Assembly: GCA_946699065.1 (NCBI GenBank)
Contig: CAMPDV010000120.1
Location: 62,001 to 126,000 of the forward strand
Direction of reading: 5' to 3'
Source of the DNA: Loxodes magnus
Taxonomy: Eukaryota > Ciliophora > Karyorelictea > Loxodida > Loxodidae
DNA: 64,000 bases
The translations under genes were made by a program, and so were the position numbers. Below are positions 27,714-56,753 of the stretch, piece after piece; the stretch's first letter is position 1, and the number at the start of each line of letters is the position of its first letter. A model generated the notes under the pieces. It was not told the DNA's origin. It saw only the letters and a program-made list of their open reading frames with translations, and searched no databases.

Positions 27714-30700
27714 ATGGTAGAATAAGATCTAAAAGCATTTTTAGAAAATGCTATATAAGATTTAGAAAAAGTTTAATAAATCCTTGTTCTACTGGATGAT
27801 TGAGGAGTTACCAAAATGTCTGAATTAAATTTGATATCAGATCAAGATGTCAAAGAAATAGGAATCAAGCCTCTTTAATGGAAATTAATAAGGTAGAAAT
27901 TAAAATAATGTCAAGGTGAAAATTCAACCTAAACTTTAGTTAGTCAAAAATAGTAAGAGATAAAAAAAGATATGATTTAAGTTTAAGAAAATAAATAAGA
28001 AATAAAAATTTAATAACAAGGAGATTAAACATTAGCACAGTAAGTAAAAGAAGAATAGTATTAATCAGCAAAAGAGAAAGCATCTGAAGATTATAATAAA
28101 CAAAAGTAAACGAAAATTTCCAATTAACAAAATGAAGAAGTACCTAAAGATTTAAAATCCTCCTAATAATCTGACTAAATTGAAATTTCTGACAATTAAA
28201 ATCAATCGAATGAAGAAAATAAGCATTAAACTTAAAAAGTGAATAAAAATAAAAATTAATAATAATATGACGGAGAATCACCCTAAAAATTAATGGTAGG
28301 AAAAAAAATATAATAAAAGGAATCAGAAGAAATGATAAATTACAAAAGTCAAAATTAATAAAGTATCTCATAGTTTTAAAATATAGAAAAATAAGAAACC
28401 TTTCAATAAATAAATGAATACAACGTTACTTAATGCAATATTTAATAATTTAATTCTTATTTTATTTCCTTGTCTTAAGATTAAAAAGAAAGAGTTTTGG
28501 AATATTTAGTAAAGAACAAAGAATAAATATTTTTATAATACTGTACTGAGTAATAGTATTTTGAGCAATAATTATTATTTGTAAAAACGAAAAAAATTTT
28601 GGAATTACTCATTTAATAGAAAAAGTTTGATAAATGTAACGAAGAATTATAAAAATTGACTCAAAAGAGTTTATCTTGCGGCATGTATCTTTATTTTATA
28701 TTTCACAAAAATTATTCTGAATTTAAAATTCCATTTAGTAATAAAGAGTAAGAATTAGAAAATATTATTTAAAGATTAGAAGCACTTCAAGAGTAATGTC
28801 CTTCTGAATGCTTATAATAATTTAAAGAGTTAATAAGTTTTTACGAATTCGGAATTGACGAATCAGCAGTTGAAAAATTTAGTGATGTTTATCTCAAATC
28901 AATCCCCTTTCATTCAATTATTTCAGAAATTATTTTATAAGATAAGCCTAAATTAATTAAATAATCAAAAATAATTGCTCTTTAGAAATAAATAAGTCTG
29001 AATAGAGAATAATAGCCTTTTTCAAGCCTTTCTAGCAACGAAGAAAGTAAATTAAATTAATTTTTTATTAAAATAAAGGAAGAAAATTATAAGTAAGCTT
29101 CTTAAGATCTTGCGTCTTTAATCAGTGGCATTTAATTATCTAAAATAGCTATATAAATTTATAATGACTTGATAGTAATTGATCCTTAGTTTGAAGAATT
29201 CTTAAAAAGAGAGGAAATCTTTGTTTTAACTTCTCCAGAGGAAATAAAAAATTAAATAAAAAAAGTTAAAAAAATTTTGCACTTACAAATTAATCAATTA
29301 ACAGAATAATAACTAAAAGTAAAAATATTTTAGTTTAAAGAACTTTGCCAAGCAATTTTCTTTGAAGATGAGAAACTATTTTAAGAGTTCCATTAGAAAT
29401 TTATTTAATAACATAATATTTTTTCTTAAATTGAAAAACCCTTAAGTTGCATATAGCAAAATCAATAGAGTTTGGATGAAGTTTAAAAAGTGCTACAAGT
29501 TAATGAAAATAAACTTTCAATTACTGATTTTATGAGTTTAGATGTATCACTATAAATGGAAAAATTAGAAAATTAATTAACTGAAAATTATGGGAAATAA
29601 AATGCATTTGAATCTTAATTACTATTAGCTTTACTTTTCGATTATGTTAAAAGAAGACTAAATTTTTCAAAACTTATAACTTCTTTTTCCAAACAAAACA
29701 AAATAACTCCTTTGACTAGAATATAATTATTTTAATTTCTAATGAGAAATGCGGATTAAAAATTAAGAATCTTACTTTACGTAGCTTGCTCTCTTTTTAT
29801 GCCTATGCCTTTGCTATCTTGAGAATTAGATACCACAACAAATGAATGAAAGAAGATAATATATAAAGAGCTTTTCTATGTATTTGAAAAATATAAAGCA
29901 GTTTTAACTTTTAAACTTCAATCAAATCCAAATAAGGGTCCTTAAGGATGTACTTCATTAATAAATTCTATTTTTAACAGAGATTTTGAAAAGCATAACA
30001 GTAGATTAACTAATTATGGAAGCATTGAAATTTAATTTGATATGAATTTTGCTTCTCCAATGTGTATACCGGTAGCAGATGTTCATGGATATCTAAATTT
30101 AGAACAGCTAGAAAAATTTTATAGTTTATTTGATATTTTCATTATTCATATTCTAAACAAAAAAGAAGATAAAAGCATACTTAACTCTTAAATAGAGAAA
30201 ATAAAATAGGTTAAGCAAGATTTTTTAATAATAATAGTAGAACATAATTAAAATTTTAGTAGAGAAAATATTGAATACTAGCTAACTGAAGAAAATGTTC
30301 ATTATTTCTAAATTTGCTAGTTTGAAAAGATAGAAGAGCAAGCAAAAATAAACTTAAAGGATAAAATTTACTAATTTGTGTAAGTAAAAATAAAAGACTA
30401 CTATTAGTTTATAGGAGATTATAATATGAGGTTAAACTCTATGCAAGCATTTTATAATATTATTTAAGATACTAATTAAATATTAGTAGATATAGTAAAC
30501 AGTTCTAGATTAGTTAATAATTTTTTATTTGAAGTAAAAAACTATATTGGAAATCTCAAAGATGTAGGATTTCTTCCTTGTAACTAGATAATGGATGATA
30601 TATGCAAGTACTAAATTTAGCTTTATATAGAAAGTGAGATAGATTAGTCTGCTAGAGACTAACTTTTATAAAATCTTGAAGATTCTAAGCGCTTATTATA

Positions 30701-33700
30701 AAAGTAAGACTAAACATCAATTGTGAAAATTCTAATAGAAATAATAGATTCAGAAAACTTTATTGGAATTGCTTCCATTATTTCTAAATTGTTGAAAGGG
30801 TTGCTAGATAAGGAACTAGCACCTTTATATTAAAAAAGAACATAATACAGAGCTGATTTATAATAAGAAGGTATATCTAACGAAAATAAAAATGATATTA
30901 TTTTACAGATGAAGGAAGTTACTAAATAAGTAGAATAAAAGCTTTTTAGTATGGAATTTGTTATTAGAGAGTTATATTACTTAGGATAAAATTCTTAAAT
31001 TAATTCTTAAATTAACAAATGAACTATTGGATAAGAGTCAAAGAACTCTTATTTCGAACTAGCAAAACTTTAAATAGACTAAGGGTAGCCTTTTGAGATT
31101 ATTGATGGAAATAACTTATAATTCATTTCAGAAATTTATGATATAATCCACAAAAATGATAATGATCAAGTTCTAATAGTAAGTGTTATAGGACCTTAAT
31201 CTTCAGGAAAGTCTCTTTTACTTAACTTTTTATTTGGAACTTAATTTCTATCTGCTGCAGGTAGATGCACTAAAGGAATTTATACTTCATTATTACAAAT
31301 AAATAATAAAAACTCTAATTATAAGAAAATATTATTACTAGATACTGAAGGAATCTAAGCTTCAGAAGGAAGAGATGATTAATTTGACAGAAGGATAGTT
31401 TTTTACATAATGTGTGTATCTCATGTAGTTCTAATATGTAATAAAGGAGAAATGAATAAGTAAATGGCTGAAGTTCTTAAGCTTGCTATAGATGCAATAT
31501 CCAATCTGAAAGAAAATATAGTTTAATAACCTAGTGTTAATATAATTATGAATATGCAGGCTTAAATAAATGAATAAGCAATGGAAGAAAGTATTAAAGG
31601 AATTAGTTAAGCTATATTAGAAATAGAAAAGAATATCAACAGTAATTTAGAAGAATAAAAAGAAGTTTAAAAATAAGTATTTAAAATTACAAGAGATAAT
31701 GTATTTATACTTCCGTTTGCCTTCGATAGATCAGGTGAAGGAAATTTGGTTATTAATTAACCCTCGTAAGAATTCGCTAAATCTCTAGAACCATTAAAAT
31801 CATAAATTTTGCAAAGAGCTATATAATTTGATGAAAGACAAGGTGGTCATTTCACTTTATCAGAATGATACTAATTTGCCTCTAGTCATTGAGCATTTAC
31901 TTAAACTTTTAAAGGTATTACTGAGTTCACCAGCTTAGATGAAAAAAAATAAGATAAGAAAGTAAATGAAAAAATGAATGAATTAATTTCAGAAAACTTA
32001 TAATAAAAATTTAAAGAACACAAAGCCGAAATTTCAGAATTAATTAAGGAAGGATTAAAAAAGTTTTAAGGAGCAGCTTTTGTAAAGATTGAGATAGTAA
32101 GCAATGAAATTAAGCAATAAATTATTAATAAATTTGAATGTTTAAAATAAATTTTATTAGAAGAATTTAAAAAATACTGTGGGGATTAAAACATTAGTTT
32201 GTCTTTAAGAGATAGTAAAAAAATATAGTTCATTCGATAACTTATTTACTGAGAATAATAATGAAGTTCTTGTGCTAACGAAGACATTGCTTTATTTGCA
32301 GAAAAAAAATCAAGAAATGTAGGAGATGCTAGACTAGGAACTTTTATTTAAAATGCTTTAAAAGAAAAAAAAGGATACACAAAATAAGAAGCCGAATAAA
32401 AATTTTAAGATGCTTGGGAACAAATAGTAGCCGAAGTAAATTAAATGTTAAAATCAAAGAAAATAGTTTCCTAAGATGTTTTTTTGCTAATTCATAATTT
32501 ATATTAAAATGAGATAGTTGAGAATAAATTTTAAAATATTTAAGAAGAAAAAGAATATCTCTAAAAATATAAAAAGTCTTGTTTAAGTTTCTTTTTAGAT
32601 AAATTCAAAGACTAAAAATTAAGTGGGAGCTTTTTCTATTTTACAGGAAATTAAATAAAGCCTAAAATTACAAATATACTAGCATTTTAGAAGAAAAATA
32701 AAATATATATTTAAGGTTTTTCTTAAAATATTTTAGATGAGATAATTGTTTAAACTCAATTTGATTGAGAAAAATTTATTCAAGAAAGATTTAACTTTTT
32801 ATTATTACAGGAATAGTTAGAAGAAATTTTAAATGTTTCTTATAAAATATGAAGGTCTACAAAATATGATAATCTAAATTTATTAATTAATTTATTATAA
32901 TAAGAATTTCAAACATTGGACATAAATTGTGCTGTTTTAGTCTCTGAATTATAAGATATCGAATAAACATTAGTCTAGTTCGATTAAAAAGTAAAAAAGT
33001 TAGACTCCATTTAACAAATTATAACTTTGATTTAAATATTCGTGGCAAATGTATACGATAATGTTGGCAAATATTTTTAATGGTAATCTAGTAATGTTGC
33101 AAATAATTTTAACTCTATTTAAATTTTTAAATATTTTAACTTTTATGATATAAATTATAAAAGAATAACTTAAGACTAAATTTAGTGATCAAAAATTAAA
33201 AAATAGTATTAACCAATTGATTATTGCACATAGTAAACTTATAAAAAAACTTAATAATTTAATCATAATCCCTAAAATTCCAAAATAAAATATTACTTTA
33301 CTGAATATTTCCAAATCACACTAGACAAGAATATGAAAAGATATTTTTAATTTATTGAAGCTCCTCATTAAGTTCTAATACAAGAGCAAGGATAAGAATG
33401 TAAAAGTGCTTTTAGATATTTTCATTAGAAGTTAAATTGAGATAAAATATTACATGAAATAGAAATGTGTGTTTTATAAAATTACAAATCAGATGGAGAA
33501 GTTTAAGAAAACGAAAACATTTATGATTGAATAAAAAATTTAAAAAGTAAAGATAAAAATTAGTACAAAAATAAATTTGTTTAAGTTACTTAAAAGTTAA
33601 CTTAAAATATAGCTAAAAGTGTTTAATAATTAGTTTAAAAAATTAATGATGAATTAGAATATTTTTGTTTAGGAACTTCAGAAATTGGAACCCATTTTTT

Positions 33701-35690
33701 ACATTTAATTGCTAGAACTTATATAACAGTACTTGCCGAATAACTTGAACTAATTAAAGAATAATCTCCACTTGAAATATAAAAAAATTAAATGGAAATT
33801 CAAAAAGAAAAGTTTATAGCAATATTAACAAGTAATGATTAGTTAATAGATTCCTCTCTTGCTGGAGAAGTATTCCTAAAAGTAAAATAAGATTTGGTTG
33901 GGAGAGCAAAATTAGAAATAATTACTGATTTCAATAACAAGATGAATGTGCTGAAAACTCGTTCGTTTAAGAAATCTTAAGTTGTAAAAAAAATAGAAGA
34001 ATTTATACTATCGAGAGCTGGAAATTAAATAATCTAATAATAGGAAGAAGGAAAAGAGTTAAAGCAAAAGGAACAAGAAGCAGAGATAGAAATTACAGAA
34101 GAAGATGCTATTATATTTTACGTGGATCCTAAGAATTTATTCTAATCTATGTTTCAAAAATACTGGAAAGCCTATACTACCTCAATTATTGAAGAAACAA
34201 TGAAAACTTATATGACAAGAATTTAAGAAAAAGTATAAAATCTAATTACTTACTTTAAGCAATTTTGCTTACAAATGGAATAAAAATGTAATATTCCTTC
34301 CTTTTAACTTTTTATTGAAAAGTAGAAAAATGAAAATCTTTATTAATGAAATAATGAAAACGAATAAGAAAATAAAAATTTCTAAAGTTAATTATCAATT
34401 TTTAGCTAAAAAGCAGCAGGGCAATATTTGGAAAAATTTATTGAGTAAAAATGGTAACAAAAAGAAACAATTACAGTAGATGGAATATAATTTATAGAAA
34501 ATTTCAGATATGTTTTACCACTACCTTAAGATATCTAAGCAGGTCTTGAACTTGATTAAGATATAGTTAATGCTATAGTTGCTTAAATAAAAAACTAACG
34601 TATTACTAATTTATATAATTTTCTAACTGAACTCTAGAAAAGAATTGAAGATTAAAACTTTGAGGAATCAATGAAAAGTAGCATATAAAAGGAAGAATTA
34701 GTTGGACAGCATCTTTAAGATTTTAAAGCTGATTTAACAGGATGTGATGAATATTGTAAACTATGTAGAAGATAATGTGATGTTGTTCATCCAAGTAATG
34801 AACCTTTGCCAGACAGAAAGCATGCATGTAATGAAGGTCATTAAATTTAAGCTTTTGGAGGAAATATGCATTTTACAAGTAAAAAAGCTATAACTATTTG
34901 TTGCAATGAACTTAGAGATTCGGATGAAGTTATTTATAAAAACGAAACTTTGAAATGAATTAAATTCAAATAAAGATTTAAAAACTGATCATTCGAAACT
35001 TAAAGTAAAACTTAATCTATTCGTATTAAAGATAAAAATGTTGTAATTTGGAATTATCTAGGTAAAAGGATTTGTGAGTATTATTAATAATAGAATGGAA
35101 TTTAAATTAACTTTGTAGAGGCAAACAAATAATTACCATAAGGAATTCTACAGATTCACTATATTTTAATGTTGGATAGAAGTGGATCTATGAGAGGATA
35201 GAAATGATATAGTTTAATGAAAGCAATTAATTAATTTATAAGCTAATTGTAATCAAATTTACAACTGCAAAATAATTCTAAAATAACGTTAATTGCTTAT
35301 GATAATGAGGCAGAAGAAATATGTAGCTGCTAAATTCCAAATACTGAAATAATTAAAAAAATTAAATTTACAGAAGGTGGAACCAATTTTGAAAAACCAT
35401 TAAATATAGCTTATAATAGAATTCAAAATAAACTATTAAGTTATGATAGACATATAATGTGCATGATGTCAGATGGTAGAGCCGTTTTTCCTAATTTAAT
35501 AGTTTAGAAATTTAAAAAGAATGCAGAAATCATGTAAAAACTTTAATTTGTAGCTATTTCGTATGGAAACAATGAATCTAATATATTAAAGTCAATTGTT
35601 CAAGACCTGAAAGGAAAGATGAAAGAATGTCTTGAACCTCAAGAACTTACTTCTGCGTTCATAAAACTTATACCAAACACTTACGATTGA
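27714..35690 (+). CDS. giant dynamin-superfamily (VLIG/GBP-like) GTPase with VWA domain, copy 1
   Basis: One uninterrupted frame of 2658 residues from ATG 27714 to TGA 35688-35690, reading UAR=Gln and at least 15 internal TGA as Trp. Residues about 1-70 look like a SAM-type helical domain (GVTKMSELNLISDQDVKEIG). A Gln-rich linker follows. The G domain holds the P-loop GPQSSGKSLLLNFLFG (about 1160), GRCTKG (switch I, about 1182) and LLLDTEG (G3, about 1207); this is the arrangement of very large inducible and guanylate-binding GTPases. A long helical middle follows, then a Cys/His cluster (GCDEYCKLCRRQCDVVH, HACNEGHQ, about 2343-2390) and a C-terminal VWA domain with the MIDAS start MLDRSGSMRGQKW (about 2486) and MSDGRA (about 2583). 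It probably hydrolyses GTP and self-assembles; its cellular role is unknown. Gene 2 (48144-56753) is its inverted paralogue. No intron is required. Confidence 0.92.
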
Positions 35691-36104
35691 TATTGAAATT
35701 AAATTATATATTAATTAAATTGAATTATGAATAGATATATTTACTAAAAAGCTTTAACAGATTTTTTATTTCTTTCAATTTCTTATTTCATCCCTATTTT
35801 ATAAAAATTTTCTTTTATCTTTTATCTTTTGTCATTTTTTTCTTATCTGTACGAATTTAAATAATATAAATCTTTATTTATTGAAAAGATAAAAAAGCAA
35901 GGAATGCTTTAAATCTTTATGACTCTTTCTTTTTATAAAAAAATAATTTTATACAAGTTTTCTGATTTTTTGTCTTGCAATGAATAGACTCAAACGTTTC
36001 CGAATCAGTATTTTTCTTCATAATTATTGATTTTCTACCTACTTCCATTTTCATATCATCTTATATCTATTCACTACATAATAAATTGAACCACATCGAC
36101 TCTA
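35691..36104. other. intergenic, A/T-rich, convergent to gene 1
   Basis: Holds the 3' flank of the giant gene, which shows no homology to the 3' flank of gene 2, and a weak minus-strand frame listed separately. Confidence 0.4.
35860..36096 (-). CDS. possible small gene or fragment
   Basis: From ATG at 36096 the minus strand reads MWFNLLCSEQIQDDMKMEVG and then IHCKTKNQKTCIKLFF, a reasonably mixed composition. Its 5' side is cut directly by the LINE segment starting at about 36105, so it may be a remnant. No family is recognised, and the 3' end is arbitrary. Confidence 0.25.
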
Positions 36105-36986
36105 TCCTAATCAAAACTCCAGTTACTCCTTTTAGAATACTTCATGTTACTAAGACTCCCCTATATTCTGCTTTAGCATAAAGTTTTAAAATGTCAGGAT
36201 TTAATTCTTATATCTCATTAGTTAAAAAACAGCTTTTTCATTGCAGCTAAATACTTGAACGCTACTTCTCTATAATGGGGATTAAAATTCTTCTTCTGAT
36301 GTAGATTAACTCCTATGTGATTGTTCTTTTTAAACAATCATTAATTTCTAATCATAAATTTTAGATTTAAAATAAAGAAGAAATTGAAAGTTCAAATAGA
36401 AACATTAATAAAATATATAAAAATAAACCTTTTATTATTAATTTTGATCATTGTCCCTTATAAGAAACGCCTCTTTTTAAAGAATCTGAAATTAAAAAAT
36501 AATAAATCAATTAGCAAATAAAAAAGCCTCAGATAGTGATGACTTAAAAGAATTAATTAAATATGGAGGATAGGAATTACATATTTTAATTACAAGCTTT
36601 AGTAACAATATGCTAAGAACACTCACTATACAAAATTAGTTGAAAATAATTAATATTTTACCTATTTTCAAAAAGGAAGTAAAAGTGTCTGACGTAATTA
36701 AAGACTAATAGCCTATTGAATTGCTTACTTAAAATATATGATAAAGCATTAACTTAAAAACTATATAATTATATATATGAAAGGAATATCAATCATCAAG
36801 CTTAATTTGGATTTTTTCAGAAAAGATCTACATCAAAACAAAATTGAACAATTTAATAGATTATTGATTTGCATCTTAGATGGTCATAAAAAATATAGTT
36901 AATTGCTACTCTAATAGATGTGGGGAAAATGTTTGAAAATATATTAAGGAAATTGCTATTTGACCATCAAAGAAGACTTAGATTAC
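36105..36986. mobile_element. duplicate of composite LINE segment (partner 23386-24256)
   Basis: This repeats 23386-24256 in the same orientation, including the inverted junction between a minus-strand RT tail and a plus-strand RT start, and the KKGSKSVSDV region. Small deletions distinguish the copies (for example 13 bases missing near 36178). Both copies share the internal junction, so the composite was duplicated as a unit. It ends abruptly at TTAGATTACT. Confidence 0.75.
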
Positions 36987-38786
36987 TAAAGAAAATATTT
37001 AAAAAAAGCAAAAATATATCTCACAAAAAAATTAGAAAATATGAAAAAAGTGTTTAAAATGTTAAAGAAAGTAATAAAATAAATAGAAAATAACTACAAA
37101 AAATCTAAACTTATTAACTTTTAGCTAAAAATTATGTAAAACTAAATTTAGAAGCACATATAATTAAAATTTATTAAACAGAAGATTAATATATAATTGT
37201 ATTACATTTTCTTTCATTTTTTTTCTAAATATTCTTTTAAGATAAATGCTTAATTTTTTTTGATTTAACTTAATTAATATTTAAATTATTAGATGAAATA
37301 TTTTAAATTTAGATTAAAATTTATATGAGAATTAGAAAAAGAAAAATTTAAATTTAGCTTTGTAATTTTGCTTAATTTATAAAATAATTAAATATTAACT
37401 TTCTTGCTTATTAATAAGCATTTTTATATAAATTAAATGTTTATTATAAATTTCAATCGTATTTTATATTTCAAAAATATAATAGATGACTGATTGTGAA
37501 ATGGTGTAAAATTTTGAATAATACATTATTTTTTAAATTTAATTTTATCTTTTATTAATTATAAATAAAAGAAGTTAAGCAAAATTTAAAAAATAAAGTT
37601 AGATTTTTTATTAAAATTCATGCAAATCTGAACATATAATTAAAGAGATTTATTTCATCGAAATTTTGTTTTACGAAGCTTATATTTAAGAATAGAGTTA
37701 GATCATGTTTGTTATAACTTCATAATTATTTTAAAGTACATTCTATATATATTTCGCGATTTTTACTTTTTTATTTCTTTTTTCCTTATGTTTTAATTTA
37801 AGTTTAATCACGTTTTAATACTATTTTTATTTTTTAAATAATTTATAAAATTTTAATTTGAAGAATGAATAATTATAATTTCATTGAATTTATATTTTTC
37901 TTATTGCATTAAATAATTTTTTACGTTATTTTTGTTGTATTAACGCTACTTTATTATTTTATTTAAAGTCGATTTTGTTAAAATTTATGCTTCATATTTT
38001 CTTTTTACTTTTTTAAATTGATTACCCTTGTCATTTTTATATGTTTATTGCTTATATAAATGTTATTTTATTTTAAAAATTATGGATTTATTTGCTTTAT
38101 CTTTTAATCCTTAATTTTTATTTGCGAATTTTCATTTATTTTTTAACTCTTTTAAATCTTTGAAATTAATCTATTTTGAAACTTTTATTGACATAAATTA
38201 AACTAAAAATAATAAGTTTACTTTATATTCTCCATAATCAGTATTATAATTAAACGAGAAGCTTGCTATAATTTTAAATTATTATAAGAATTATTTAATA
38301 ATATTTAAAATATAAAAATATTTTTATTAAGATTTAGACATTTAATTACTAAGATGAATCTTTTTGTTGGAATAGCCATAGAATTTTTAAATCATTCAAA
38401 TTTAAACCTTTCTTATAACTGGAAAATATTATATTAAGCCAATTTATTATTAAAAATTCCTAATAAGTCAAATGTAATTATTGCAAAGCAATGTTTCTTT
38501 ATTTTTAAGTTATTTTTTTATTTAATTACTTAAAATTGGTTGTTTATGATTCTTTCTTTTATTTGTCAACTCTTTAGAATACTTAGAAGATTATTTTCTT
38601 CAGATTAAGTATTTTTTTATTTTTTTATTTCACCACTTAATGCTTTTTTGCTTAAATCATTTAACTATTTAATATATAGAATTTAATTTAATTTTAAATA
38701 TATTTCTTATTATTGATAATCAAATCTTAGTATATTCATGATTAAATATATATCAATCAAATGCTTTTATTATATTAAATAAATTG
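36987..38786. other. AT-rich stretch, no gene recognised
   Basis: A/T-rich with many T-runs. I saw no supportable frame, RNA or repeat. Confidence 0.45.
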
Positions 38787-40223: not shown

Positions 40224-40279
40224 TTATATAATAAGAGATTTGACTATTAAAATTAGATTTTATTAAATATAATTTAAAT

Positions 40280-42455: not shown

Positions 42456-42489
42456 ATTCTTCTTTCACCTAGATAATGCTTTTTTTCTT

Positions 42490-43060: not shown

Positions 43061-45000
43061 AATTTACCTCATAATAGTGATAAAAAATAGAAAACATGAA
43101 GAAGAGGATATAACAATTCCATTAGCAAAACATTTAAGAACATAATAATAAAAAAGAATGTGATTAAATCATTTTTTGCTGCAATCTAACTAGTCTCCAA
43201 ATTTAAAAATTCATTGAATCAGAATATTGAAGACGTCACTAAATTAAATGTGCAATATATAAAATAGATATGTTACAATTAATTAAGACTTAGAATAAGG
43301 AACGGTAGATAGTATGAAAAGTAAAATTTATATAGACAGAAAACTCCTTAAAAATATACGACTTTAGTAATATATATTTTGATATAATATTTTCATTAGA
43401 ATCCTGAACATGGAAAAAAACTAGTAAATATTTAAGTGAATCAATAAGGATTGAAGAATATCTGCATTTATGAAAATGGAATACCGGCAGGATCTGAGAA
43501 ATTTAGAAAATATCAATAAAGTAGAAAAATAAAGATGGACCATATAAACATTAATGGAATATCTAGTAAATGACTAAATGTGGAATACTTTATCAGAGAT
43601 AATTGTATAAGTTTTATCAATAAATGAAACTTGGTAAAAAGACGAATTTCCAACAATAATAAAAATTAAATGTAGCCCATATTTGAAAAACTCAGGAAAA
43701 GGAAGTGGTATATGTCTACTAGTAGTTGAAGAATTATATATTATAGAAGGGCAAATAGAGTATGAAAAATAATTAAATCGATTAGCTACAATTAAACTGG
43801 ATAATATTTTAATCACATCTCGTTACATGCTTGATAGTGGGAAAGATTGAGATATCAAAGATTAAGCTTATGAACTTCTTAAGGCATTGCTAAATAAATT
43901 TAATAAGAATTCACATATATTGATGGGAGATTTCAATACCCTGTTATAAAGCTTCGGAGACAATCCTGAAAATATTTATGATAATACATATAGATTATAA
44001 GAATTTCTATTACAAAATGATCTTGAAATAGTGAATTATAGTAATATTAATACATGTATACACAAAAGAACTGGATAATTGTATTATGATTATATTATTA
44101 TAAGCAACCATTTGAATATTAATTAATTTTCAAAATTCACTGCTCATAATAATAGTTTATTTTGACCATTTTCCAATCACTGTCTATTTTATTTGTAATA
44201 TTATAATCTATTGAGAAAATATAATTAAATGAAAATATAAATAAATAGGTTATAGATGAAAAGGTAGGCAAATATATTAAGAATCTTTCCCACAAACTTA
44301 ACTAAAATACTTTTAGAAAGATTAAGATAATCTTAAAGGTTAAAATGAATATTTCAAAAGCAACATTTAAGACGCTGCTGATTAAACATTGGGGTAGTTT
44401 ATTCTAAATTCAGATTTAACAAACCTTCTCAAGATCTTACTAAGAAATATATAGAGAGTAATAGAGCTAATTCTGTATATAAGGAAGCTCACATAAAATA
44501 TGGAGGAATAAACTATCAAGTAACTAATCTTCATGAGTTAGCAAAAGACTTTGGAAATAATTCAAGTATAATCTGTGAAAATAAATAAAAAAAATCAAAA
44601 AAGAAATTTCTTCTTAATGGAGATGCTAAGGAAATGTTTTCACAAGCAAATAAAATTCTAAATCATATGAAGAGAAACAATATGAACTTTAATTAAGAGA
44701 TCAAAAATAAATTAATTGGCTCATGGGAGAATTGTGTTTTTTACAAGTATTCTAGTCTAACTCAATAATAGATAAATTTTAGTATTTGAAAAATAGATAA
44801 ATATACGATAGTATTTAAGAAATTAAAGATTATCTACTCTCATATTTATAAGGATTTAATCTTTTTAACATACAAGAAATTTAAGAAATTATAAAAGAAA
44901 TTCCGAATGGAAAAACAGCTGGTCCAGACGGAATGAAAGGTGAACTTCTGAAATATTTTGAATAATTTCGATTAAAATTTTTTATTCTATTTGAAAGAAT
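43061..45000 (+). mobile_element. LINE ORF2 fragment: APE endonuclease and RT start
   Basis: From about 43529 the plus strand encodes an apurinic-type endonuclease: INGISSKWLNVEYFIRDNCI, then after one frameshift SINETWQKDEFPTIIKIKCS, GKGSGICLLVVEEL, SRYMLDSGKDWDI, the catalytic HILMGDFNTLL, RLQEFLLQNDLEIVN and DYIIISNHL. A linker and the start of the RT domain follow, with GKTAGPDGMKGELLKYF at about 44918. The element is cut near 45000, where an oppositely oriented endonuclease fragment begins. TGA read as Trp restores the invariant-looking Trp positions. The stretch 43061-43528 is probable upstream element sequence without a clear frame. Confidence 0.75.
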
Positions 45001-45039
45001 TCATTACAAGTTTGCATAAATGATTGTTAATATCTTTAT

Positions 45040-45650
45040 CTATCAATTGGATCTTACAAACGATTAATTTTATATTTTCTCTAAATTATTTTATCATCAT
45101 CATAATATTTTGTATTAAACAAAAATTTAACTGCAATTGGAATGTGATCAGTTTTTAAGCAGCCATTGTGAACCTAAAAATTTGCAAATTAATTATTATT
45201 TAAATGACTACTAGTTAAAATATAGTCGTTACAGTACAATTTTCCCGTTTCTTTGTGTATGCATGTATTACTAATCGTATTATTAACTATTTGAAGATCG
45301 TTTTATTGCAAGAATTCTTAAAATCTAGATGTGTTGTCATAATCGTTTTAAGTATTATTTCCGTAATTTTATAATAGAGCATTGAAGCCTCCTATAAATA
45401 TATAAGGATTATTTGGAAATTATCCAAAATATGTATTAATATAATCATAAACTTAATCTTTAATAAGACTACTTTTATTATTGTCTGGCATATAGCAAGA
45501 TGTGATTAATATATTTATATAATGTAAGCCTTTACTAATAATGCTAATTAAACCTTGGGTAAATTCATTAAAATATAAACCATAACAGATTACCATGAAA
45601 TATAATTAATAGTTTTAATTCTGCGAAATAAGAGTAAATTTCTTATTAAA
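45040..45650 (-). mobile_element. LINE endonuclease fragment, minus strand
   Basis: The minus strand encodes the C-terminal half of the same endonuclease type: FIGGFNALLQNYGNN, FQEFLQQNDLQIVNNTISNT, CIHKETGKLYCNDYILTSSH and the H-x-P motif KTDHIPIAVKF. It is closely related to, but distinct from, the copy at 43.9-44.2 kb, and it stands head to head with that element. Confidence 0.7.
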
Positions 45651-45665
45651 AAACACTAATACAGC

Positions 45666-45950
45666 ATGGAAAAGTCTATTAAATAGTTATTTAAAAAGTA
45701 TAAGAAAAAGCAAGAAAATTCAATAGATATAAACAGAAATACTGAAAATACAAGTAAAAAGAGGCAAAATTTAATAGAAAAGCATGAATAAATCTCAGCC
45801 TAAAATGTTTAAATAAGCAAAAAAGCTTCTAAATCGAGAAAAGGATTATATTAGAATTAAATTATTAGTAGATATATAAAATAAAAATTACTTAAAAATC
45901 TGTTAAATTCATAAGGAAAATAAGTAATAATTATAAAGATAAATATAAAT
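45666..45950 (+). CDS. possible small basic protein
   Basis: From ATG 45666 the frame reads MEKSIKQLFKKYKKKQENSI, then NRNTENTSKKRQNLIEKHEQ and ISKKASKSRKGLYQNQIISR. It is Lys/Gln-rich and probably disordered. The stop is not resolved. It sits directly next to the LINE endonuclease fragment and may be a gene truncated by it. Confidence 0.35.
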
Positions 45951-46239
45951 ATAAAAATTAAATAATTAAGATTTTTTTCTGTTTATTTTAGTCAAAGTTT
46001 AATTTACATTAAATAAGAATTTAGCAAAAATGTAAGCTTTATTTCAAAAATTAATTTAAAAAATTTTTCATATATTTTTTGGAAAAAATAACCAGATAAA
46101 TGAAGATATTTGAGGAACGTTGAAAATAAATAAAGGATATTGCTTAAAAAAAATTATTAATCATTAAAACAATTATTCGTCCTTTGGCTTAATTTAAGTT
46201 TTAAATGCATGTAATTTCTTTTACTACATGCCCTATCCT
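45951..46239. other. A/T-rich, nothing recognised
   Basis: No frame or repeat was noticed. Confidence 0.4.
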
Positions 46240-46690: not shown

Positions 46691-46699
46691 ATATTTTTC

Positions 46700-47420
46700 T
46701 TGCTCTAGGAAATGTATTTTCTTGTTTTTCTATTTTAATAGGAATTCCTCTATGAAAGTTTCTGCATATTTTTTCTTCTATTAATTTTAGTTTTGAATCT
46801 AATTATACTCAGTTTTTTCTCATCTTACTCTCTCATTATTCAAATTATCTTGTAATCCAGTTATTCTATCATGAACTCCGGCTTTAGCTTTTTGGTTTAT
46901 CATATGAACTTCATCATCATCAATGAAGTTCTGATTTATTTCAAATATTTCTTCCTTCAATAAATTTAAGTTCTCTTCGAAATTTTGTATTTTTTTCTGA
47001 GTTGATATATTAACTGTATCATCTATTAAGAGTCCATATGTTCTATTTCAATATTATCTAAATCAAAAGTATCAGAGTTAAAGTCGAATTACGTACTATG
47101 TCTTCTTCGTTATCTTTTATTTATTATTTTCAGAGATTCAGTTGAGTGGTCTCTTTTATTCGTTTTTGGCGTGGCGATAGGACTTTTTTTATTTCTCTGC
47201 TCTGAATTTTTCTTCAGCGTTTATTTGTCCGTTGAAAGAAGAAAGCCTCTTCACATTTTTATTATTTTAGATATATTTCTTAATTTTTTAAGTTTCCTCC
47301 CTGCTGGTCAATTGTTGGTCTTAAAAAGAATTGATTAATTAAAGCTGAGAAGTTGTAAAAGGAGATGCTCCTGGTTTTCTCTCCTGCTCTGAGGAAGTTC
47401 TAAAATAACCTTTTTGAAGC
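46700..47420 (-). mobile_element. diverged LINE ORF1-like fragment
   Basis: The minus strand encodes a coiled-coil region (KKIQNFEENLNLLKEEIFEI, then DDDEVHMINQKAKAGVHDRI) and at its 5' end shares the CTTTTTGAAGCC element with 26600. It is degraded; assignment to the LINE is by partial similarity. Confidence 0.45.
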
Positions 47421-47629
47421 CAGCCTTTTTATATTTTTGCTATAATAAAAATAAAATAAAATTTTTGGTAAATATTTCTATAATATTTATTTAGTCATTA
47501 TCTTGAATTTAATAATTAAAAAAAGTTATTTTTCGTCTCTTTATGTGCTAGTAAATTTTCTGGAATTTTAAGAGAATTTGAATAGATGAAATTTCTTTAT
47601 GCTATAAAAATACTTCTTTGTGAATAAAA

Positions 47630-47995
47630 ATGAAAGTTACAAAATTTTATGATCTATAAACGGATTTATTATAATTTCTAAACTTTATAGATTATTCCAT
47701 TCTTTTGAATAAAACTTGATTATACAGAAGGTTGGCTTCACTTTTTAATTTAAGAATAAAAAGATTGAAATTTACTTTAATCAAAATTTTTCTTTAGAAT
47801 CAAAAAATTTATTAATATTCAAAAATTTTCTAAAATTTGCCTTCACAGCAAACTTTATGCAAAGGATTACCCTATTCCAAAACTGAAAAATTGATATAAA
47901 TTCATAAAACTTTATATAAAGATAAGTGACACTTAATTTAAGCAAAATATCTTTGTCAAAAAAATGAATTAAAATCATTTAAACATTAGAAATAT
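47630..47995 (+). CDS. possible F-box-like protein fragment
   Basis: From ATG 47630 the frame reads MKVTKFYDLQTDLLQFLNFI and DYSILLNKTWLYRRLASLF, resembling the F-box pattern (LL..L.F.D......NK.W) with the Trp coded by TGA. It continues with NLPSQQTLCKGLPYSKTEKL and ends near LCQKNELKSFKH. F-box proteins recruit substrates to SCF ubiquitin ligases. The match is short and based on eye alone. The 3' end is not resolved, and the gene runs toward the end of giant gene 2. Confidence 0.35.
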
Positions 47996-48143
47996 ATATA
48001 AAAATTAATATATTAAAACAGTGAAGAATATTCTAAGAAAATCGTATAAATAAATTTAAATATATAAATAATTTTAATTTATTTTTACTTCTAATTACAT
48101 TAAATTTAATTTTTATATTATTAAAATTTAGTTTGCTTAAAGT

Positions 48144-51100
48144 TCACTAACAATCGTAAGTGTTTGGTATAAGTTTGATAAAAGCAGATGTAAGATCTGA
48201 AGGTTCGATACATGTTTTTATCTTTCCTTTTAAGTCATCTACCATTTTCACCAAAACAGGGAATGAATTTCCTCCATATCCAATAGCTACAAAATCAAGT
48301 CTATTTATGATTCCTTCATGCTATTTTATCTTTTATATTATATTCTAAGGATATTGAGCACCACCATCTGACATCATGCATAGTATATGTCTATCATAAC
48401 TTTATAGATTCTTTATAATACTATTATAAGCTATATTTAATGGATTTTCAAAATTGGTTCCACCTCCTGTAAATTTAATTTAATTTATTAAATCGAAACT
48501 CGGAGATTAATAACTACATATTTCTTTGCTCTTATTATCATAAGCTATTAGTGTTATTTTTGAACTACTTTCCAGAAGTGGATTTTATTATAATTAGTTT
48601 AAAAATTAATTTACTGCCATCATTAAATTTTTTCATTTCTATCCTCTCATAGATCCACTTCTATCCAACATTAAAATATAGTGACTCTGTAGAATTCCTT
48701 ATGGTAATTATTTGTTTGCCTCTACAAAGTTAATTTAAATTCCATTCTATTATTAATAATACTCACAAATCCTTTTACCTAGATAATTCCAAATTACAAC
48801 ATTTTTATCTTTAATACGAATAGATTAAGTTTTACTTTAAGTTTCGAAAGACCAATTTTTAAATGTTTATTTGAATTTAATTCATTTTAAAGTTTCTTTT
48901 TTGTAAAATACTTCATCTTAGTCTCTAAGTTCATTGCAACAAATAGTTATAGCATTGTTGCTTTAAAAATGCATATTTCCTCCAAAAGCTTAAATTTAAT
49001 GACCTTCATTACATGCATGCTTTCTGTCTGGCAAAGGTTCATTACTTAGATGAACTACATCGCATTATCTTCTGCAAAGTTTACAATATTCATCACAACC
49101 TGTTAAATCAGCTTTGAAATCTTAAAGATGCTGTCCAACTAATTCTTCTTTTTATATGCTACTTTTCATTGATTCCATAAAGTTTTAATCTTCAATTCTT
49201 TTATAGAGTTCAGTTAGAAAATTATATAAATTAGTGATACGTTAATTTTTTATTTAAGCAACTATAACTTTTACAATATCTTCATCAAGTTCGAGACCTA
49301 CTTGGATATCTTAAGGTAACGGTAAAACATATCTGAAATTTTCTATAAATTAAATTCCATCTACTGTAATTGTTTCTTTTTGGTACCATTTTTACTCGAT
49401 AAACTTGAGAAAATATTCCCCTGCTGCTTTTTAGCTAAAAATTGATAATTAACTTTAGAAATTTTTATTTTCTTATTCGTTTTCATTATTTAATTACTAA
49501 AGATTTTCGTTTTTCTATTTTTCAATAAAGAGTTAAAAAGAAGGAACATTACATTTTTGTTCAACTTACGAACAAAATTCCTAAAAGAAAGTAATTAGAT
49601 TTTATACTTTTCTTTAAATTCTAGTCATATAAGAATTCATAGTTTCTTCAATAATTGAAGTTGTATAAGCTTTCCAATATTTTTAAAACATAGATTAAAA
49701 TAAATTCTTAGGATCTACATAAAACATAATAGCGTCTTCTTCTGTAATTTCTATCTCAGCAGTTTATTAGTTTTGTTTAATCTCTTTTAATTCTTCCTGC
49801 TAATAATTTGTCTAATTTCCAGCCCTTGATATAATGAAATCTTCTATTTTTTGTATAACTAATGATTTCTTGAATGAACGTGTTTTCAGTACATTCATCT
49901 GGTTATTGAAATCAGAAATAATTTTTAATTTTGCTCTTCCAACCAAATCTTCCTTGACTTTATGAACTATTTCTCCTGCAAGAGAGGAATCTATTAACTA
50001 ATCATTACTTGTTAATATTGCTATAAACTTTTCTTTTTGAGTTTCCATTTAATTATTTTATATTTCAAGTGGAGATTATTCTTTAATTAACTCTAGCTGT
50101 TCAGCTAGTACTGTTAGATAAGTTCTAGCAACTAAGTGAAAAAAATGTGTTCCCTTCTCTGAAATCCCTAAGCAAAAAAACTCTAATTCGTCGTTTATTT
50201 TTTTAATTACTCATTAAACACTTTTAGCTATGCTCTGAGTTAATTTTTAAGTAACTTAAACAAATTTATTTTTATATTAGTTTTTATTTTTACTTTTTAA
50301 ATTTGTTATTCAGTCATCAATATTTTCATTTTCTTAAACTTCCCCATCAATTTTATAATTTTATAAAACACATATTTCTATTTCATGTAATATTTTAATT
50401 CAATTTAACTTCTAATGAAAATATTTAAAAGCACTTTTGCATTCTTATCCTTATTCTTGAATTGGAGTTTTATGAGGAGCTTCAATAAACTGAAAATATC
50501 TTTTCATATTATTATCTAATTTATTCAAAAATTATTGATTGAATTCGTACTTTATTTTGGAGACTGAAAAATCATATTTTTACTCTTCAGATTTAGAAAA
50601 AATGTTTATAACTTAATAATCAATTTCATAATATTTTTTATAAACTTTTTATCATTAAATTCGATTTTGAATTCATTTTATATCATTAATATCATCAAAA
50701 TTAAAAAATTCTCAAAACTAATTATAATGCAAGTTGTAATCAATATGAGTAGATTAGCATTTAAAAAACTAAGGAATATTATTGTATATATTATATACGA
50801 ATTTTTAAACTAAAGAGCTATTTCTTTTTTTTGTAAAAAAAGTTCAATTTTTTCTCTTTTTATTGAAATCGTTTAATGTTTATTCCATATTACTCAATAA
50901 ATTAACTAATATATCACAATTTATTTGCAAAATTTGAGATTCTCTTTATATTTTTCTAATTTATTGGTCTAATTTATCTTAATCTGCTCTAATTTAAAGA
51001 GTTAAAGAAACGTCTAAAAATTGTTCTATCGTTGTGACTAACTTATAAAAGATAAATCTTTCTTAAATAAATTTTTCTTAATTAAATCTAATGTGAATAA

Positions 51101-54100
51101 CTTTCACATCTAAAATGTTTTAAGAAAAATTTTCTGTATATATTTTTGTTTTTTTTTGAAAAGCAATTATATTCTCAATATTAGGTTTTACATAGTTTCC
51201 TGTAAAATATAAGAAGCTTTAACTAAATTTTTATTTCTTTATTTCGCTTAAAAAGGAATTAAGGTTAAGTTTTTTATAATTATAGAGATATTCTTTTTCT
51301 TCCTAAATATTTTAATAACTGTTTTCCACTATTTCATTTTGATATAAATTATGGATTAATTTGAAAACTTCTTCGTAAACTACATTTTACGGTTTTAACA
51401 TATATTCAACTTCATGCATTATTTAATCTCAAGCTTCTTTAAACTTTTATTCAGCCTCTTAATTTTAATATCCAATTTTTTCTTTTAAAGCATTGTGAAT
51501 AAAATATCCTAATCTAGCATCTCCTACATCTCTAGACTTTTTTTATGCAAATAGAGCAATATCTTCGTTAGTATGTGAATTTCATTATTATTCTCAATAT
51601 TAAATTTATCGAATAAATAACGATTTTTTACTATCTCTTAATGATAAACTAATGTTTTAATCTCCACAGTATTTTTTAAATTCTTCTAATAACATTTATT
51701 TTATTTATTCAAATTTATTAATAATTTATTGCTTAATTTCAATGCTTACTATCTCAATCTTTACTAAAGCTACTCCTTAAAATTTTAACAATTCTTATTT
51801 AATTAATTCTGAAATTTCTGCTTTGTGTTCTTAAAATTTTTATTCTAAGTTTTCTAAAATTAATTAATTCATTTTTTCATTTACTTTCTTATCTTATTTT
51901 TTTTCATCTAAGCTGGTGAACTCAGTAATACCTTTAAAAGTTTAAGTAAATGCTCAATGACCAGAGGCAAATTAGTATCATTCTGATAAAGTTAAATGAC
52001 TACCTTGTCTTACATCAAATTATATAGCTCTTTATAAAATTTTAGATCTTAATGGTTCTAGAGATTTAGCAAATTCTTACGAGGGTTAATTAATAACCAA
52101 ATTTCCTTCACCTGATCTATCGAAGGCAAATGGAAGTATAAATACATTTTCTCTGGTAATTTTAAATATTTATTTTTAAACTCCTTTTTACTCTTCTTAA
52201 TTACTGTTGATATTCTTTTCTATTTCTAATATAGCTTAACTAATTCCTTTAATACTTTCTTCCATAGCTGATTCATTTATTTAAGCCTGCATATTCATAA
52301 TTATATTAACACTAGGTTATTAAACTATATTTTCTTTCAGATTGGATATTGCATCTATAGCAAGCTTAATAATTTCAGCCATTTACTTATTCATTTCTCC
52401 TTTATTGCAAATTAGAACTACATGAGATACACACATTATATAAAAAACTATTCTTCTGTCAAATTAATCATCTCTTCCTTCTGAAGCTTAGATTCCTTCA
52501 GTATCTAGTAATAATATTTTCTTATAATTAGAGTTTTTATTATTTATTTGTAATAATGAAGCATAAACTCCTTTAGTGCATCTACCTGCAGCAGATAGAA
52601 ATTAAGTTCCAAATAAAAAGTTAAGTAAAAGAGACTTTCCTGAAGATTAAGGTCCTATAACACTTACTATTAGAACTTGATCATTATCATTTTTGTGGAT
52701 TATATCATAAATTTCTGAAATGAATTATAAGTTATTTCCATCAATAATCTCAAAAGGCTACCCTTAAATAATTTAAAGTTTTGCTAGTTCGAAATAAGAG
52801 TTCTTTGACTCTTATCCTATTAGTCTTTTGTTAATCTGTGATTAAACTTGAGAATTTTAACCTAAATAATATAATTCTCTAATAACAAATTCCATACTAA
52901 AAAGCTTTTATTCTATTTATTTGGTAACCAACTTCATTTTTTTAAGTATTTCATTCATATTTTCGTTAGATAATCCTTCTTGTTGTAAATCAGCTCTATA
53001 TTATGTTCTTTCTTAATACAAAGGCTCAAGCTCTTTATCTAATAATCCTTTTAATAATTTAGAAATAATGGAAGCAATTCCAATGAAGTTTTCTGAATCT
53101 ATTATTTCTATTAGAATTTTTACTATTCTTGCTTACTCTTATTTTTATAATAAGCGCTTAGAATTTTCAAGATATTATAAAAGTTATTCTCTAGCAGACT
53201 AATCTATCTCACTTTCTTTATAAAGTTAAATTTCATATTTGCATATTTCTTCCATTATCTAGTTACAAGGAAGAAATCCAATATCTTTAAGATCACCAAT
53301 ATAGTTTTTTACTTCAAATAAAAAATTATTAACTAATCTAGAACTGTTTTCTATATCTACTAATATTTAATTAGTATCTTAAATAATATTATAAAATGCT
53401 TGCATAGAGTTTAACCTCATATTATAATCTCCTATAAACTAATAGTAGTCTTTTATTTTTACTTACACAAATTAGTAAATTTTATCCTTTAAGTTTATTT
53501 TTGCTTGCTCTTCTATCTTTTCAAACTAGCAAATTTAGAAATAATGAACATTTTCTTCAGTTAGCTAGTATTCAATATTTTCTCTACTAAAATTTTAATT
53601 ATGTTCTACTATTATTATTAAAAAATCTTGCTTAACCTATTTTATTTTCTCTATTTAAGAGTTAAGTATGCTTTTATCTTCTTTTTTGTTTAGAATATGA
53701 ATAATGAAAATATCAAATAAACTATAAAATTTTTCTAGCTGTTCTAAATTTAGATATCCATGAACATCAGCCACTGGTATACACATTGGAGAAGCAAAAT
53801 TCAAATCAAACTATATTTCAATGCTTCCATAATTAGTTAATCTATTGCTATGCTTTTCAAAATCTCTGTTAAAAATAGAATTCATTAAGGAAGTACATCC
53901 TTAAGGACCCTTATTTGGATTTGATTGAAGTTTAAAAGTTAAAACTGCTTTATATTTTTCAAATACATAGAAAAGTTCTTTATATATTATCTTCTTTCAT
54001 TCATTTGTTGTGGTATCTAATTCTCAAGATAGCAAAGGCATAGGCATAAAAAGAGAGCAAGCTATACAAAGTAAGATCCTTAATTACTAATCAGCATTTC

Positions 54101-56753
54101 TCATAAGAAATTAAAATAATTATATTCTAGTCAAAGGAGTTATTTTGTTTTGTTTGGAAAAAGAAGTTATAAGTTTTGAAAAATTTAGTCTTCTTTTAAC
54201 ATAATCGAAAAGTAAAGCTAATAGTAATTAAGATTCAAATGCATTTTATTTCCCATAATTTTCAGTTAATTAATTTTCTAATTTTTCCATTTATAGTGAT
54301 ACATCTAAACTCATAAAATCAGTAATTGTAAGTTTATTTTCATTAACTTGTAGCACTTTTTAAACTTCAACTAAACTCTATTGACTTTACTATAAGCAAC
54401 TTAAGGGTTTTTCAATTTAAGAAAAAATATTATGTTATTAAATAAATTTCTAATGGAACTCTTAAAATAGTTTCTCATCTTCAAAGAAAATTGTTTGGCA
54501 AAGTTCTTTAAAAGCAAATTTTTTTTCTTTCAGTTCTTATTCTGTTAATTGATTAATTTGCAAGTGCAAAATTTCAATAGAATTTTATATTTCATTTTTT
54601 ATCTCTTCTGGAGAAGTTAAAATAAAAACTTCCTCTCTTTTTAAAGATTATTCAAACTGAGTATCAAATGTTATTAAATCATAATAGATTTATAAAGCAT
54701 AATTTGATATTTTAAAATTTTTAATTAAAGACGCAAGATCTTAAGAAGATTATAAATAATTTCCTTCCTTAAGTTAAATAAAAAATAAATCAAATTTACT
54801 TTTTTCATTTTTTTGAGAGATAGAGGTATTTTATTTTTCTCAATTCTGGTTGAAAATTTTCTAAAGAATGTCTATTTTTGATTTTTTTCTTAATTGAGGC
54901 TTTTAAAAAAAAAAAAGTCCTGAAATAATTGAATAAAATGAAATTGAAACAAGATAAATATCACTTAGCTTTTCAAGTATTAATTCATCAATTTCAAATT
55001 CACAATAACTAATTAGCTCTTTAAATTACGTTTAACACTCTGAAGGACATTACTCTTGTAAAGCTTCGAGTTTTTAAATAATGGAATATGATTCGCCCTC
55101 TTTATTGTCAAATGGAGAATTAATCTGTTAATAGCCTTTGCAAAGTATCAAATAAAGATACATACCACAAGGCAAACTCCTTCGAGTCATTTTTTATAAC
55201 TCTTCGTTACATTTATCAAACATTTGCTTTTAAATTAGTAAATCCAAAATTTTTTTAGTTTTTATAAATAATTAAGATTGCTCAAAAATTTTTTATTCAG
55301 TACAGTATTATAAAAATATTTATTCTTTATTCTAAACTAAATATTCCAAAATTTATTCTTATTTATTGTTAGGTAAAGAAATAAAATAAGAATGAAATTA
55401 TTATAAATTATGCTAAGCAACATTTTATTCAGTTATTTATTCTTTTATTTATTCAGTTATTTATTCAGTTATTTATTCAGTTATTTATTCAGTTATTTAT
55501 TCAGTTGTTTATTCAGTTATTTATTCAGTTGTTTATTCAGTTGTTTTTTCTAAATTTTATTCTTTATCTATATTTTATTCAGTTATTTATTCAGTTATTT
55601 ATTTAGTTATTTATTCAGTTGTTTATTCAGTTATTTATTCAGTTGTTTATTCAGTTGTTTATTCAGTTGTTTTTTTTAAATTTTATTCTTTATCTATATT
55701 TTATTAAGTTATTTATTCAGTTATTTATTCAGTTATTTATTCAGTTGTTTATTCAGTTGTTTTTTTTAAATTTTATTCTTTATCTATATTTTATTAAGTT
55801 ATTTATTCAGTTATTTATTCAGTTATTTATTCAGTTGTTTATTCAGTTGTTTTTTTTAAATTTTATTCTTTATCTATATTTTATTCAGTTATTTATTCAG
55901 TTGTTTTTTCTAAATTTTATTCTTTTTCTAAATTTTATTCAGTTATTTATTCTCTTTCTATATTTTATAATTATAATTCACTGGATCATTTTTGATTATA
56001 GTCATTTAATATCTCTTTACTTTTTTTTTCTGGCTAACTTGATTCAACCAATAACTGTTAAGACTAGTCATTTTCAGAATTGTATTAGTTTTATTTTTCT
56101 AAGCTTTAATTTTTTAATTAATCTTATATTTTCTCATTTTATTACTATTTTTTTAACTAAATATTTGTTTAGATTTGAATTTCTTGGTCACTTTCATTTT
56201 ATATTTTTGTCTCGATTTAAGTTACTGCGCAACTTTGTTCCTTTAGGTAATTTTACTGTCAAAAAATTTCATTTTAATTAGATTATTAGAAAGGTTTAAA
56301 TTCTTAAGGTGATTCTTACTTTTTTAAATCTATAACAATATTCATCTAATTTTTTTCATCGAAATTCTAAGATTTTTATTTTTAAGCTGGTTAATTTTTT
56401 TCTTCATTTGCTTATTGTTTTAAATTATAATTTTCTTTTTATTAAATTTATTCTACTTATTTAATTTCTTAAATTTTAATATTGTCTTATTTTAATTCTA
56501 TCTATTGAATATGCTCATTTGAAATATCTGGATTTTGGTTTGAATTTTCACCTTAAAGTTAAGTTAATTTTTACTTTATTAATTTCCATTACAGAGGTTT
56601 AATACCTATTTCTTTGATATCTTAAATTTATATTAAATCTAATTCAGATATTTTGGTGACTCCTCATTCATTTAGTAAAACAAGAATTTGTTACGCTTTT
56701 TCTTAGTCTTTTATAGCACTTTCCAAAAATTCCTTCAGATCTCTTTCTACCAT
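48144..56753 (-). CDS. giant dynamin-superfamily (VLIG/GBP-like) GTPase with VWA domain, copy 2
   Basis: One uninterrupted frame of 2869 residues from ATG 56753 to TGA 48146-48144; the 12-A run at 54905-54916 is in frame. The architecture matches copy 1: SAM-like N-terminus (GVTKISELDL...DIKEIGIKPLQW), Gln-rich region expanded by a Thr-Glu-Gln-Ile repeat (residues about 260-450), P-loop GPQSSGKS at about 1367, DTEG, Cys/His cluster, and VWA with LDRSGSMRGQKWKNLMMAVN. Most TGA codons are conserved as TGA with copy 1; others alternate with TGG, which shows they mean Trp. It ends ...PNTYDCQ where copy 1 ends ...PNTYD. Divergence is uneven: the G domain and C-terminus are nearly identical, while the N-terminal linker and a helical segment (51.1-50.5 kb) differ strongly. 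Both copies appear functional. Confidence 0.92.
55395..55975 (-). repeat. in-frame minisatellite coding Thr-Glu-Gln-Ile repeats
   Basis: On the plus strand the 12-bp unit TTATTCAGTTAT is tandemly repeated. It is arranged in a higher-order 90-bp (30-codon) unit seen about three times (starting points near 55681, 55771 and 55861), where runs of TEQI/TEQT alternate with QNIDKEQNLKK. Both unit lengths are multiples of three, so copy number can change without breaking giant gene 2. Gene 1 lacks it. The long Phe/Ile/Leu plus-strand frame here is its antisense shadow. Confidence 0.9.

What the first reader, a model, noticed from the sequence alone, without database searches (positions are those of the whole stretch)
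27714..56753. All three stop codons are sense: UAR=Gln and UGA=Trp, with UGA also terminating
Seen directly: the two giant genes each give one frame without frameshift (2658 and 2869 codons) only if TAA, TAG and TGA are all sense. Reciprocal evidence fixes TGA as Trp: copy 1 TGA at 34986-34988 (FKN-W-SFE) aligns with copy 2 TGG at 48854-48852, and copy 1 TGG at 32415-32417 (DA-W-EQI) aligns with copy 2 TGA at 51431-51429. Other TGA codons are conserved in both copies at places where Trp is natural, such as the VWA motif SGSMRGQKW. Both genes nevertheless end at TGA. Known precedent: karyorelictids and Condylostoma have such context-dependent codes.
Basis: partly seen in the sequence, partly recalled or inferred. 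Interest (0 to 1): 0.9.

Follow-up and report, generated by a model that had tools for sequence, protein, structure and literature searches.

The report
Known karyorelict ciliate genetic code
In this ciliate genome the three usual stop signals are read as amino acids (UAA and UAG as glutamine, UGA as tryptophan) while UGA also ends genes, which is real and striking but is the already published code of the group to which the organism almost certainly belongs.

Summary
Two diverged, inverted paralogues (27714-35690 + and 48144-56753 -) read through 17 and 20 internal TGA and hundreds of TAA/TAG codons, and both end at TGA. Independent evidence supports the assignment. In a beta-tubulin gene of the same genome, 3 of 3 TGA lie on Trp and 15 of 15 TAA/TAG on Gln of a solved beta-tubulin. 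In the giant genes TGA faces Trp in 27 of 72 comparisons with two outside homologues, against 0.45% background. One homologue's last residue aligns with the codon just before copy 1's final TGA. The 705.7-Mb assembly matches the 706-Mbp macronuclear assembly of Loxodes magnus, whose paper states this code (NCBI table 27) and the dual role of UGA. A likely decoder, tRNA-Trp(CCA) with a short anticodon stem, is in print for Loxodes. Nothing here is a new code. The genes are VLIG/URGCP-type giant GTPases with a VWA domain. My tRNA and eRF1 searches got no answer.

The parts
27714..35690 (+). Giant gene copy 1: 2658 sense codons and TGA stop; URGCP/VLIG-type GTPase with C-terminal VWA domain; 17 internal TGA
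48144..56753 (-). Giant gene copy 2: 2869 sense codons and TGA stop; same domains; 20 internal TGA
35688..35690 (+). TGA used as stop in copy 1; the last residue of homologue P0001 aligns with the codon just before it
48144..48146 (-). TGA used as stop in copy 2, two codons (TGT TAG) after the residue that aligns with the last one of copy 1; the last residue of Paramecium protein P0007 aligns with that TGT
34986..34988 (+). sense TGA (Trp) facing TGG in copy 2 and W in P0001 and P0002
51429..51431 (-). sense TGA (Trp) in copy 2 facing TGG at 32415-32417 in copy 1 and W in P0001 and P0002
35205..35207 (+). sense TGA of the VWA motif SGSMRGQKW (codon 2498), W in P0001 and P0002; followed by TAT, as is the stop TGA of the same gene
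32415..32417 (+). TGG in copy 1 facing TGA in copy 2
48852..48854 (-). TGG in copy 2 facing TGA in copy 1

Best explanation
The window comes from the macronuclear genome assembly of the karyorelict ciliate Loxodes magnus (inferred). It uses the karyorelict nuclear code, NCBI table 27: UAA and UAG are glutamine, UGA is tryptophan inside genes and the stop at their ends. Shown here at sequence level: the three assignments and the double use of UGA. [quoted passage not shown] The two genes are diverged inverted paralogues of a giant VLIG/URGCP-type GTPase with a VWA domain, under purifying selection.
For: UGA=Trp, UAR=Gln: beta-tubulin L009 against PDB 6u0h_B, no gaps: TGA 3 of 3 on W, TAA/TAG 15 of 15 on Q, sense-codon identity 93%. 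Twenty-one tubulin-family loci: TGA on the four W positions in 47 of 77 cells, TGG on W in 11 of 19, W being 4 of 437 reference positions. Giant genes against P0001 and P0002: TGA opposite W 27 of 72, TGG opposite W 12 of 22, background W 0.45%; TAA opposite Q 148 of 841, CAA opposite Q 31 of 185, background Q 9.7%. UGA=stop: the last residue (3183) of P0001 aligns with the codon before the final TGA of copy 1, and the last residue (2775) of P0007 with the second codon before the final TGA of copy 2; alpha-tubulin L001 ends EEGYGEEGV-TGA. Context: no TGA for 160 and 162 codons and no TAA for 47 and 62 codons before the stops; G+C falls from 23% to 8-10% just after them. Selection: dN/dS 0.40 overall, 0.24-0.61 by segment, computed under this code. 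Organism: 705,730,643 bases against 706 Mbp for the MAC assembly; its authors state table 27, short 3'-UTRs and UGA/UAA depletion before stops.
Against: Between the two copies alone TGA pairs with TAA (4) more often than with TGG (2). Against the homologues 45 of 72 TGA comparisons are not W (TGG: 10 of 22 are not W), and TAG faces E (27) more often than Q (20 of 135); I did not measure how conserved those columns are. In the tubulin family 30 of 77 TGA cells are not W. Freedom from TGA before the stops is unremarkable (chance 0.35 and 0.31) and TAA depletion only suggestive: chance 0.016 and 0.0035, not independent, since the genes are paralogues. Of 16 automatically called tubulin ends 4 have a TAA within 20 codons, the clear beta-tubulin L009 among them. 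No tRNA, eRF1 or rRNA gene was examined: of the genome-search requests only one search was answered. No RNA data are on hand.
Confidence: 0.97

Rival explanations
1. The copies are decaying pseudogenes: internal TGA are true stops, the long frame an accident of a permissive code.
For: All frames are open under this code, so openness proves nothing. The first 550 codons evolve faster, dN/dS 0.61 and 0.53.
Against: One fixed reading frame of each copy aligns with the other from start to stop, 2659 columns; dN/dS is 0.24 and 0.28 in codons 551-1500 and 2001-2660; 12 of 25 internal TGA columns are shared; a beta-tubulin with 93% sense-codon identity to a PDB chain carries TGA at three Trp.
Confidence: 0.02
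2. UGA and UAR are sense in this genome, but termination uses a different signal, so the final TGA are not stops.
For: Internal and final TGA share local context: copy 1 has TGA-TAT both as sense (codon 2498) and at the end.
Against: Two homologues end there or within two codons; canonical alpha- and beta-tubulin tails (L001, L009) end at TGA; base composition drops at the TGA; the L. magnus paper gives UGA as the only stop, from transcripts.
Confidence: 0.02
3. Internal TGA are selenocysteine, or lie in short introns, rather than tryptophan.
For: A thioredoxin-reductase selenocysteine UGA is described for Parduczia and Condylostoma (passages of PMC4967479). Loxodes introns are short, mean 19.3 bp.
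Against: W is the commonest partner of TGA: in tubulins 47 of 77, in the giant genes 27 of 72. Residues around the TGA codons align between the copies without a gap at any TGA.
Confidence: 0.01

Closest known systems
Karyorelict nuclear code (NCBI translation table 27) in Loxodes magnus (PNAS 2024, PMC11441545; abstract, sections 6, 8, 9, 11, 25 and 30 and passages seen)
   Same: UAR=Gln (that table 27 reads UAR as Gln is recalled; the paper's text seen gives UGA as the only stop and also W), UGA=Trp or stop, low-GC sequence after the stop; assembly size equal
   Different: No difference found.
Parduczia and Condylostoma magnum codes (Cell 2016, PMC4967479, passages seen)
   Same: UAA=Q, UAG=Q, UGA=W with termination that depends on closeness to the transcript end; in the Parduczia transcripts inspected there, UGA is the stop
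   Different: Condylostoma is inferred there to stop at all three codons; here both giant genes end at UGA
Blastocrithidia nonstop code (abstract of PMC12153298 seen in a listing)
   Same: All three stops sense, UGA=Trp
   Different: UAR=Glu and UAA has the dual role with stop; a trypanosomatid, not a ciliate
VLIG/URGCP-type very large GTPases
   Same: URGCP_GTPase domain above the curated cut-off in both genes; four Paramecium hits are named VLIG-type
   Different: C-terminal VWA domain; VWA accessions (PF13519 or PF00092) are listed for 7 of the 50 hits, three of them Paramecium, and for none of the named animal hits

Membership tests
Karyorelict nuclear code (table 27) | UAA and UAG encode glutamine | tested here: met
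   15 of 15 in L009 beta-tubulin; in 21 tubulin-family loci TAA on Q 133 of 353, TAG on Q 49 of 126, CAA on Q 31 of 119
Karyorelict nuclear code (table 27) | UGA encodes tryptophan inside genes | tested here: met
   3 of 3 in L009, 47 of 77 in 21 tubulin-family loci; 27 of 72 against homologues of the giant genes
Karyorelict nuclear code (table 27) | UGA is the stop | tested here: met
   Both giant genes and tubulins with canonical tails. That UAA and UAG never stop was not tested
Karyorelict nuclear code (table 27) | coding UGA/UAA depleted just before stops | tested here: inconclusive
   Absent for 47 and 62 codons in the two giant genes, but paralogues, P 0.0115 and 0.0022 for UGA and UAA together; 4 of 16 tubulin ends have a TAA within 20 codons, some of these ends doubtful
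Karyorelict nuclear code (table 27) | organism is a karyorelict | tested here: inconclusive
   Assembly size equals that of the L. magnus MAC assembly; 18S search not answered
[quoted passage not shown]
   Reported for Loxodes in passages of PMC13092985 (its list of species without a UCA form does not name Loxodes). tRNA search not answered. No tRNA in the window or in the 34 loci held
VLIG/URGCP-type GTPases | URGCP-like GTPase domain | tested here: met
   PF25683 89 and 91.2 bits against cut-off 55

The most novel reading that the evidence does not exclude
One gene uses the same six-base string TGA-TAT once as tryptophan (codon 2498) and once, 161 codons on, as the stop (codon 2659). So neither the codon nor the triplet after it decides, and this natural gene can serve as a single-mRNA test of the rule that closeness to the 3' end decides.
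Probability: 0.85. Interest if true: 0.25.

Novelty: already known. Interest (0 to 1): 0.13.

Why it matters
Codes without a dedicated stop codon challenge the idea that sense and stop must be separate, and they were called surprising when reported in 2016 (abstract start in the listing). This locus adds two very long genes with 37 internal UGA-Trp codons and clear ends, useful as examples, but not a new code or a new mechanism.

Tried and rejected
Open reading frame length as evidence was rejected: under this code all six frames are open over 64 kb. The exchange count between the two copies was judged too thin alone. Comparison with the third, nearly identical copy downstream gave no TGA exchange: 36 of 2553 codons compared differ, none involving TGA. 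A first PDB search with L009 was out of frame and found nothing; redone in frame. Pfam scans of ten translations of six other stretches of the window found no family at E 0.01. ARAGORN found no tRNA in the window or in the 34 loci held (one search printed nothing, and its script did not show errors). A paper search for VLIG, ciliate and GTPase together found nothing. The codons printed 'after c2 stop' are out of frame by two bases; one search gives the right ones.

Three papers that I tried to read are not held: what I recall as the paper on karyorelict codes, the one on short anticodon stems and eRF1, and the eLife critique cited in PMC13092985. None of them was read.

Selection of loci: of the 150 tubulin matches listed, L001-L008 were returned by the tool and I chose 20 more (L009-L028), all from rows that listed at least one TGA. 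That fixes that TGA is present, not which residue it faces. One search dropped 7 near-identical alpha copies (L002-L008).

Full report
The check. The coordinates and codons in the finding are exact. Copy 1 runs 27714-35690 on the + strand, copy 2 56753-48144 on the - strand; they hold 17 and 20 internal TGA. Read in one fixed frame each and aligned with TGA masked, they share 2659 columns, the final TGA included, at 77% amino-acid identity outside the TGA columns, and no TGA faces a gap. Copy 2 has 211 residues more. Most of that is a 12-bp tandem array (55424-55910) that reads in frame as TTEQ/ITEQ repeats with TAA as Q.

Under the proposed code every frame is open, so a long open frame is not evidence. 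Of the 25 columns with an internal TGA, 12 are shared, 2 are TGA/TGG, 4 TGA/TAA and 7 others. From the TGG side the pair speaks better: of the 3 columns in which TGG has changed, 2 are TGA and one a Cys codon. The pair suggests Trp but does not settle it.

Independent tests. A search with residues 900-2658 of copy 1 found 50 proteins at E 0.001. With TAA, TAG and TGA masked, TGA faces W in 27 of 72 comparisons (TGG: 12 of 22; background 0.45%). In 8 of the 25 TGA columns both homologues have W. Q opposite TAA (148 of 841) and TAG (20 of 135) is about as frequent as opposite CAA (31 of 185), against a background of 9.7%; TAG faces E more often still (27). The clearest case is not in the window: a beta-tubulin of the same genome (L009), aligned without gaps to PDB 6u0h_B, has TGA at Trp 101, 344 and 397, TGG at Trp 21, and all 15 TAA/TAG at Gln. 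Over 21 tubulin-family loci (28 held, 7 near-identical alpha copies dropped; 20 of the 21 chosen by me from rows that list a TGA), 47 of 77 TGA fall on the four Trp positions. One search shows the same pile-up against the genome's own alpha-tubulin: 34 TGA on Trp 21, 346 and 407, and 13 on a Phe that is Trp 101 in beta-tubulin.

Termination. P0001 ends with the residues NVYE, and its last residue aligns with the last codon (of NTYD) before TGA in copy 1; the last residue of the Paramecium protein P0007 aligns with the second codon before the final TGA of copy 2. Copy 2 carries two more codons than copy 1, TGT TAG, and then TGA. After the stops G+C drops from 23% to 8-10% over 60 bases. Before the stops TGA is absent for 160 and 162 codons (not unusual for so rare a codon, P 0.35 and 0.31) and TAA for 47 and 62 codons (P 0.016 and 0.0035; with only the last 700 codons as background 0.023 and 0.012). 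The genes are paralogues, so these are not two independent tests. Of 18 tubulin loci whose end I looked for, 16 gave a TGA, called as the first one from 25 codons before the end of the alignment. In the 13 with a sense TGA the nearest one lies 32 or more codons upstream, which that rule partly imposes. Four of 16 have a TAA within 20 codons, L009 among them. Some of these ends (for example L011, L019, L022, L025) do not look like tubulin tails and may be wrong. The string TGA-TAT is sense at codon 2498 and stop at codon 2659 of copy 1, so the codon and the following triplet do not decide.

What the genes are. Both carry a URGCP-like GTPase domain and a VWA domain above Pfam's cut-offs. Four Paramecium proteins among the hits are named VLIG-type. 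dN/dS between the copies, computed under this code, is 0.40, lowest (0.24) in codons 551-1500. A third copy, 99% identical to copy 1 over 7.9 kb, lies just beyond the window at C120:132928-140831.

The organism and the literature. The window is C120:62001-126000 of an assembly of 705,730,643 bases in 7843 contigs. The Loxodes magnus MAC assembly is given as 706 Mbp. That paper states that karyorelicts including Loxodes use table 27, where UGA is the only stop and also Trp if far enough upstream of the poly-A tail, that 3'-UTRs have a median of 41 bp, and that coding UGA and UAA are depleted for about 20 codons before the stop (section read). The Cell 2016 paper (passages) reports UAA=Q, UAG=Q, UGA=W for Condylostoma and Parduczia, mass-spectrometric evidence of Trp at UGA, and the model of default translation overridden at transcript ends. 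[quoted passage not shown] The finding is therefore a correct rediscovery.

What is shown and what is inferred. Shown here: codon meanings and double use of UGA. Inferred: the organism's name (size match and code only; 18S search unanswered), the tRNA, the release factor and the positional rule. One search was the only genome search that was answered.

Noticed in passing
17544-17737 (+), 19008-19201 (-), 59432-59625 (+), 60929-61122 (-), 2686-2846 (-): Five U2 spliceosomal RNA matches in the window (146.7 to 56.1 bits; gathering score 46), four of them in two inverted pairs about 42 kb apart; three more upstream in L029 and L030. The fifth in the window is weak and may be a relic.
   Followed up: partly
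27714-35690 and 48144-56753: Divergence between the two copies is very uneven: dS 0.14 in codons 551-1500 but 0.69 in codons 1501-2000, which could mean gene conversion between the inverted copies.
   Followed up: partly
L032 and L033 (C120:132928-140831): A third copy, 99% identical to copy 1, just outside the window; it differs from copy 1 around the 5' end, where the nucleotide match is interrupted.
   Followed up: partly
55424-55910: 12-bp tandem array inside copy 2, in frame, coding for TTEQ/ITEQ repeats; no such array is listed in copy 1.
   Followed up: no
6465-7370 and 13647-14552: A 906-nt inverted repeat, 97% complementary, nature unknown.
   Followed up: no
about 45129-45404 (-): A stretch that by eye recalls the endonuclease part of a LINE element; Pfam found no match in three frames of 44100-46200.
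   Followed up: partly
L001-L008 (C64): Alpha-tubulin copies clustered on C64; none of the eight has a TGA in the aligned coding part. The other loci were chosen for having TGA, so whether such codons are avoided in abundant genes is only an idea.
   Followed up: no
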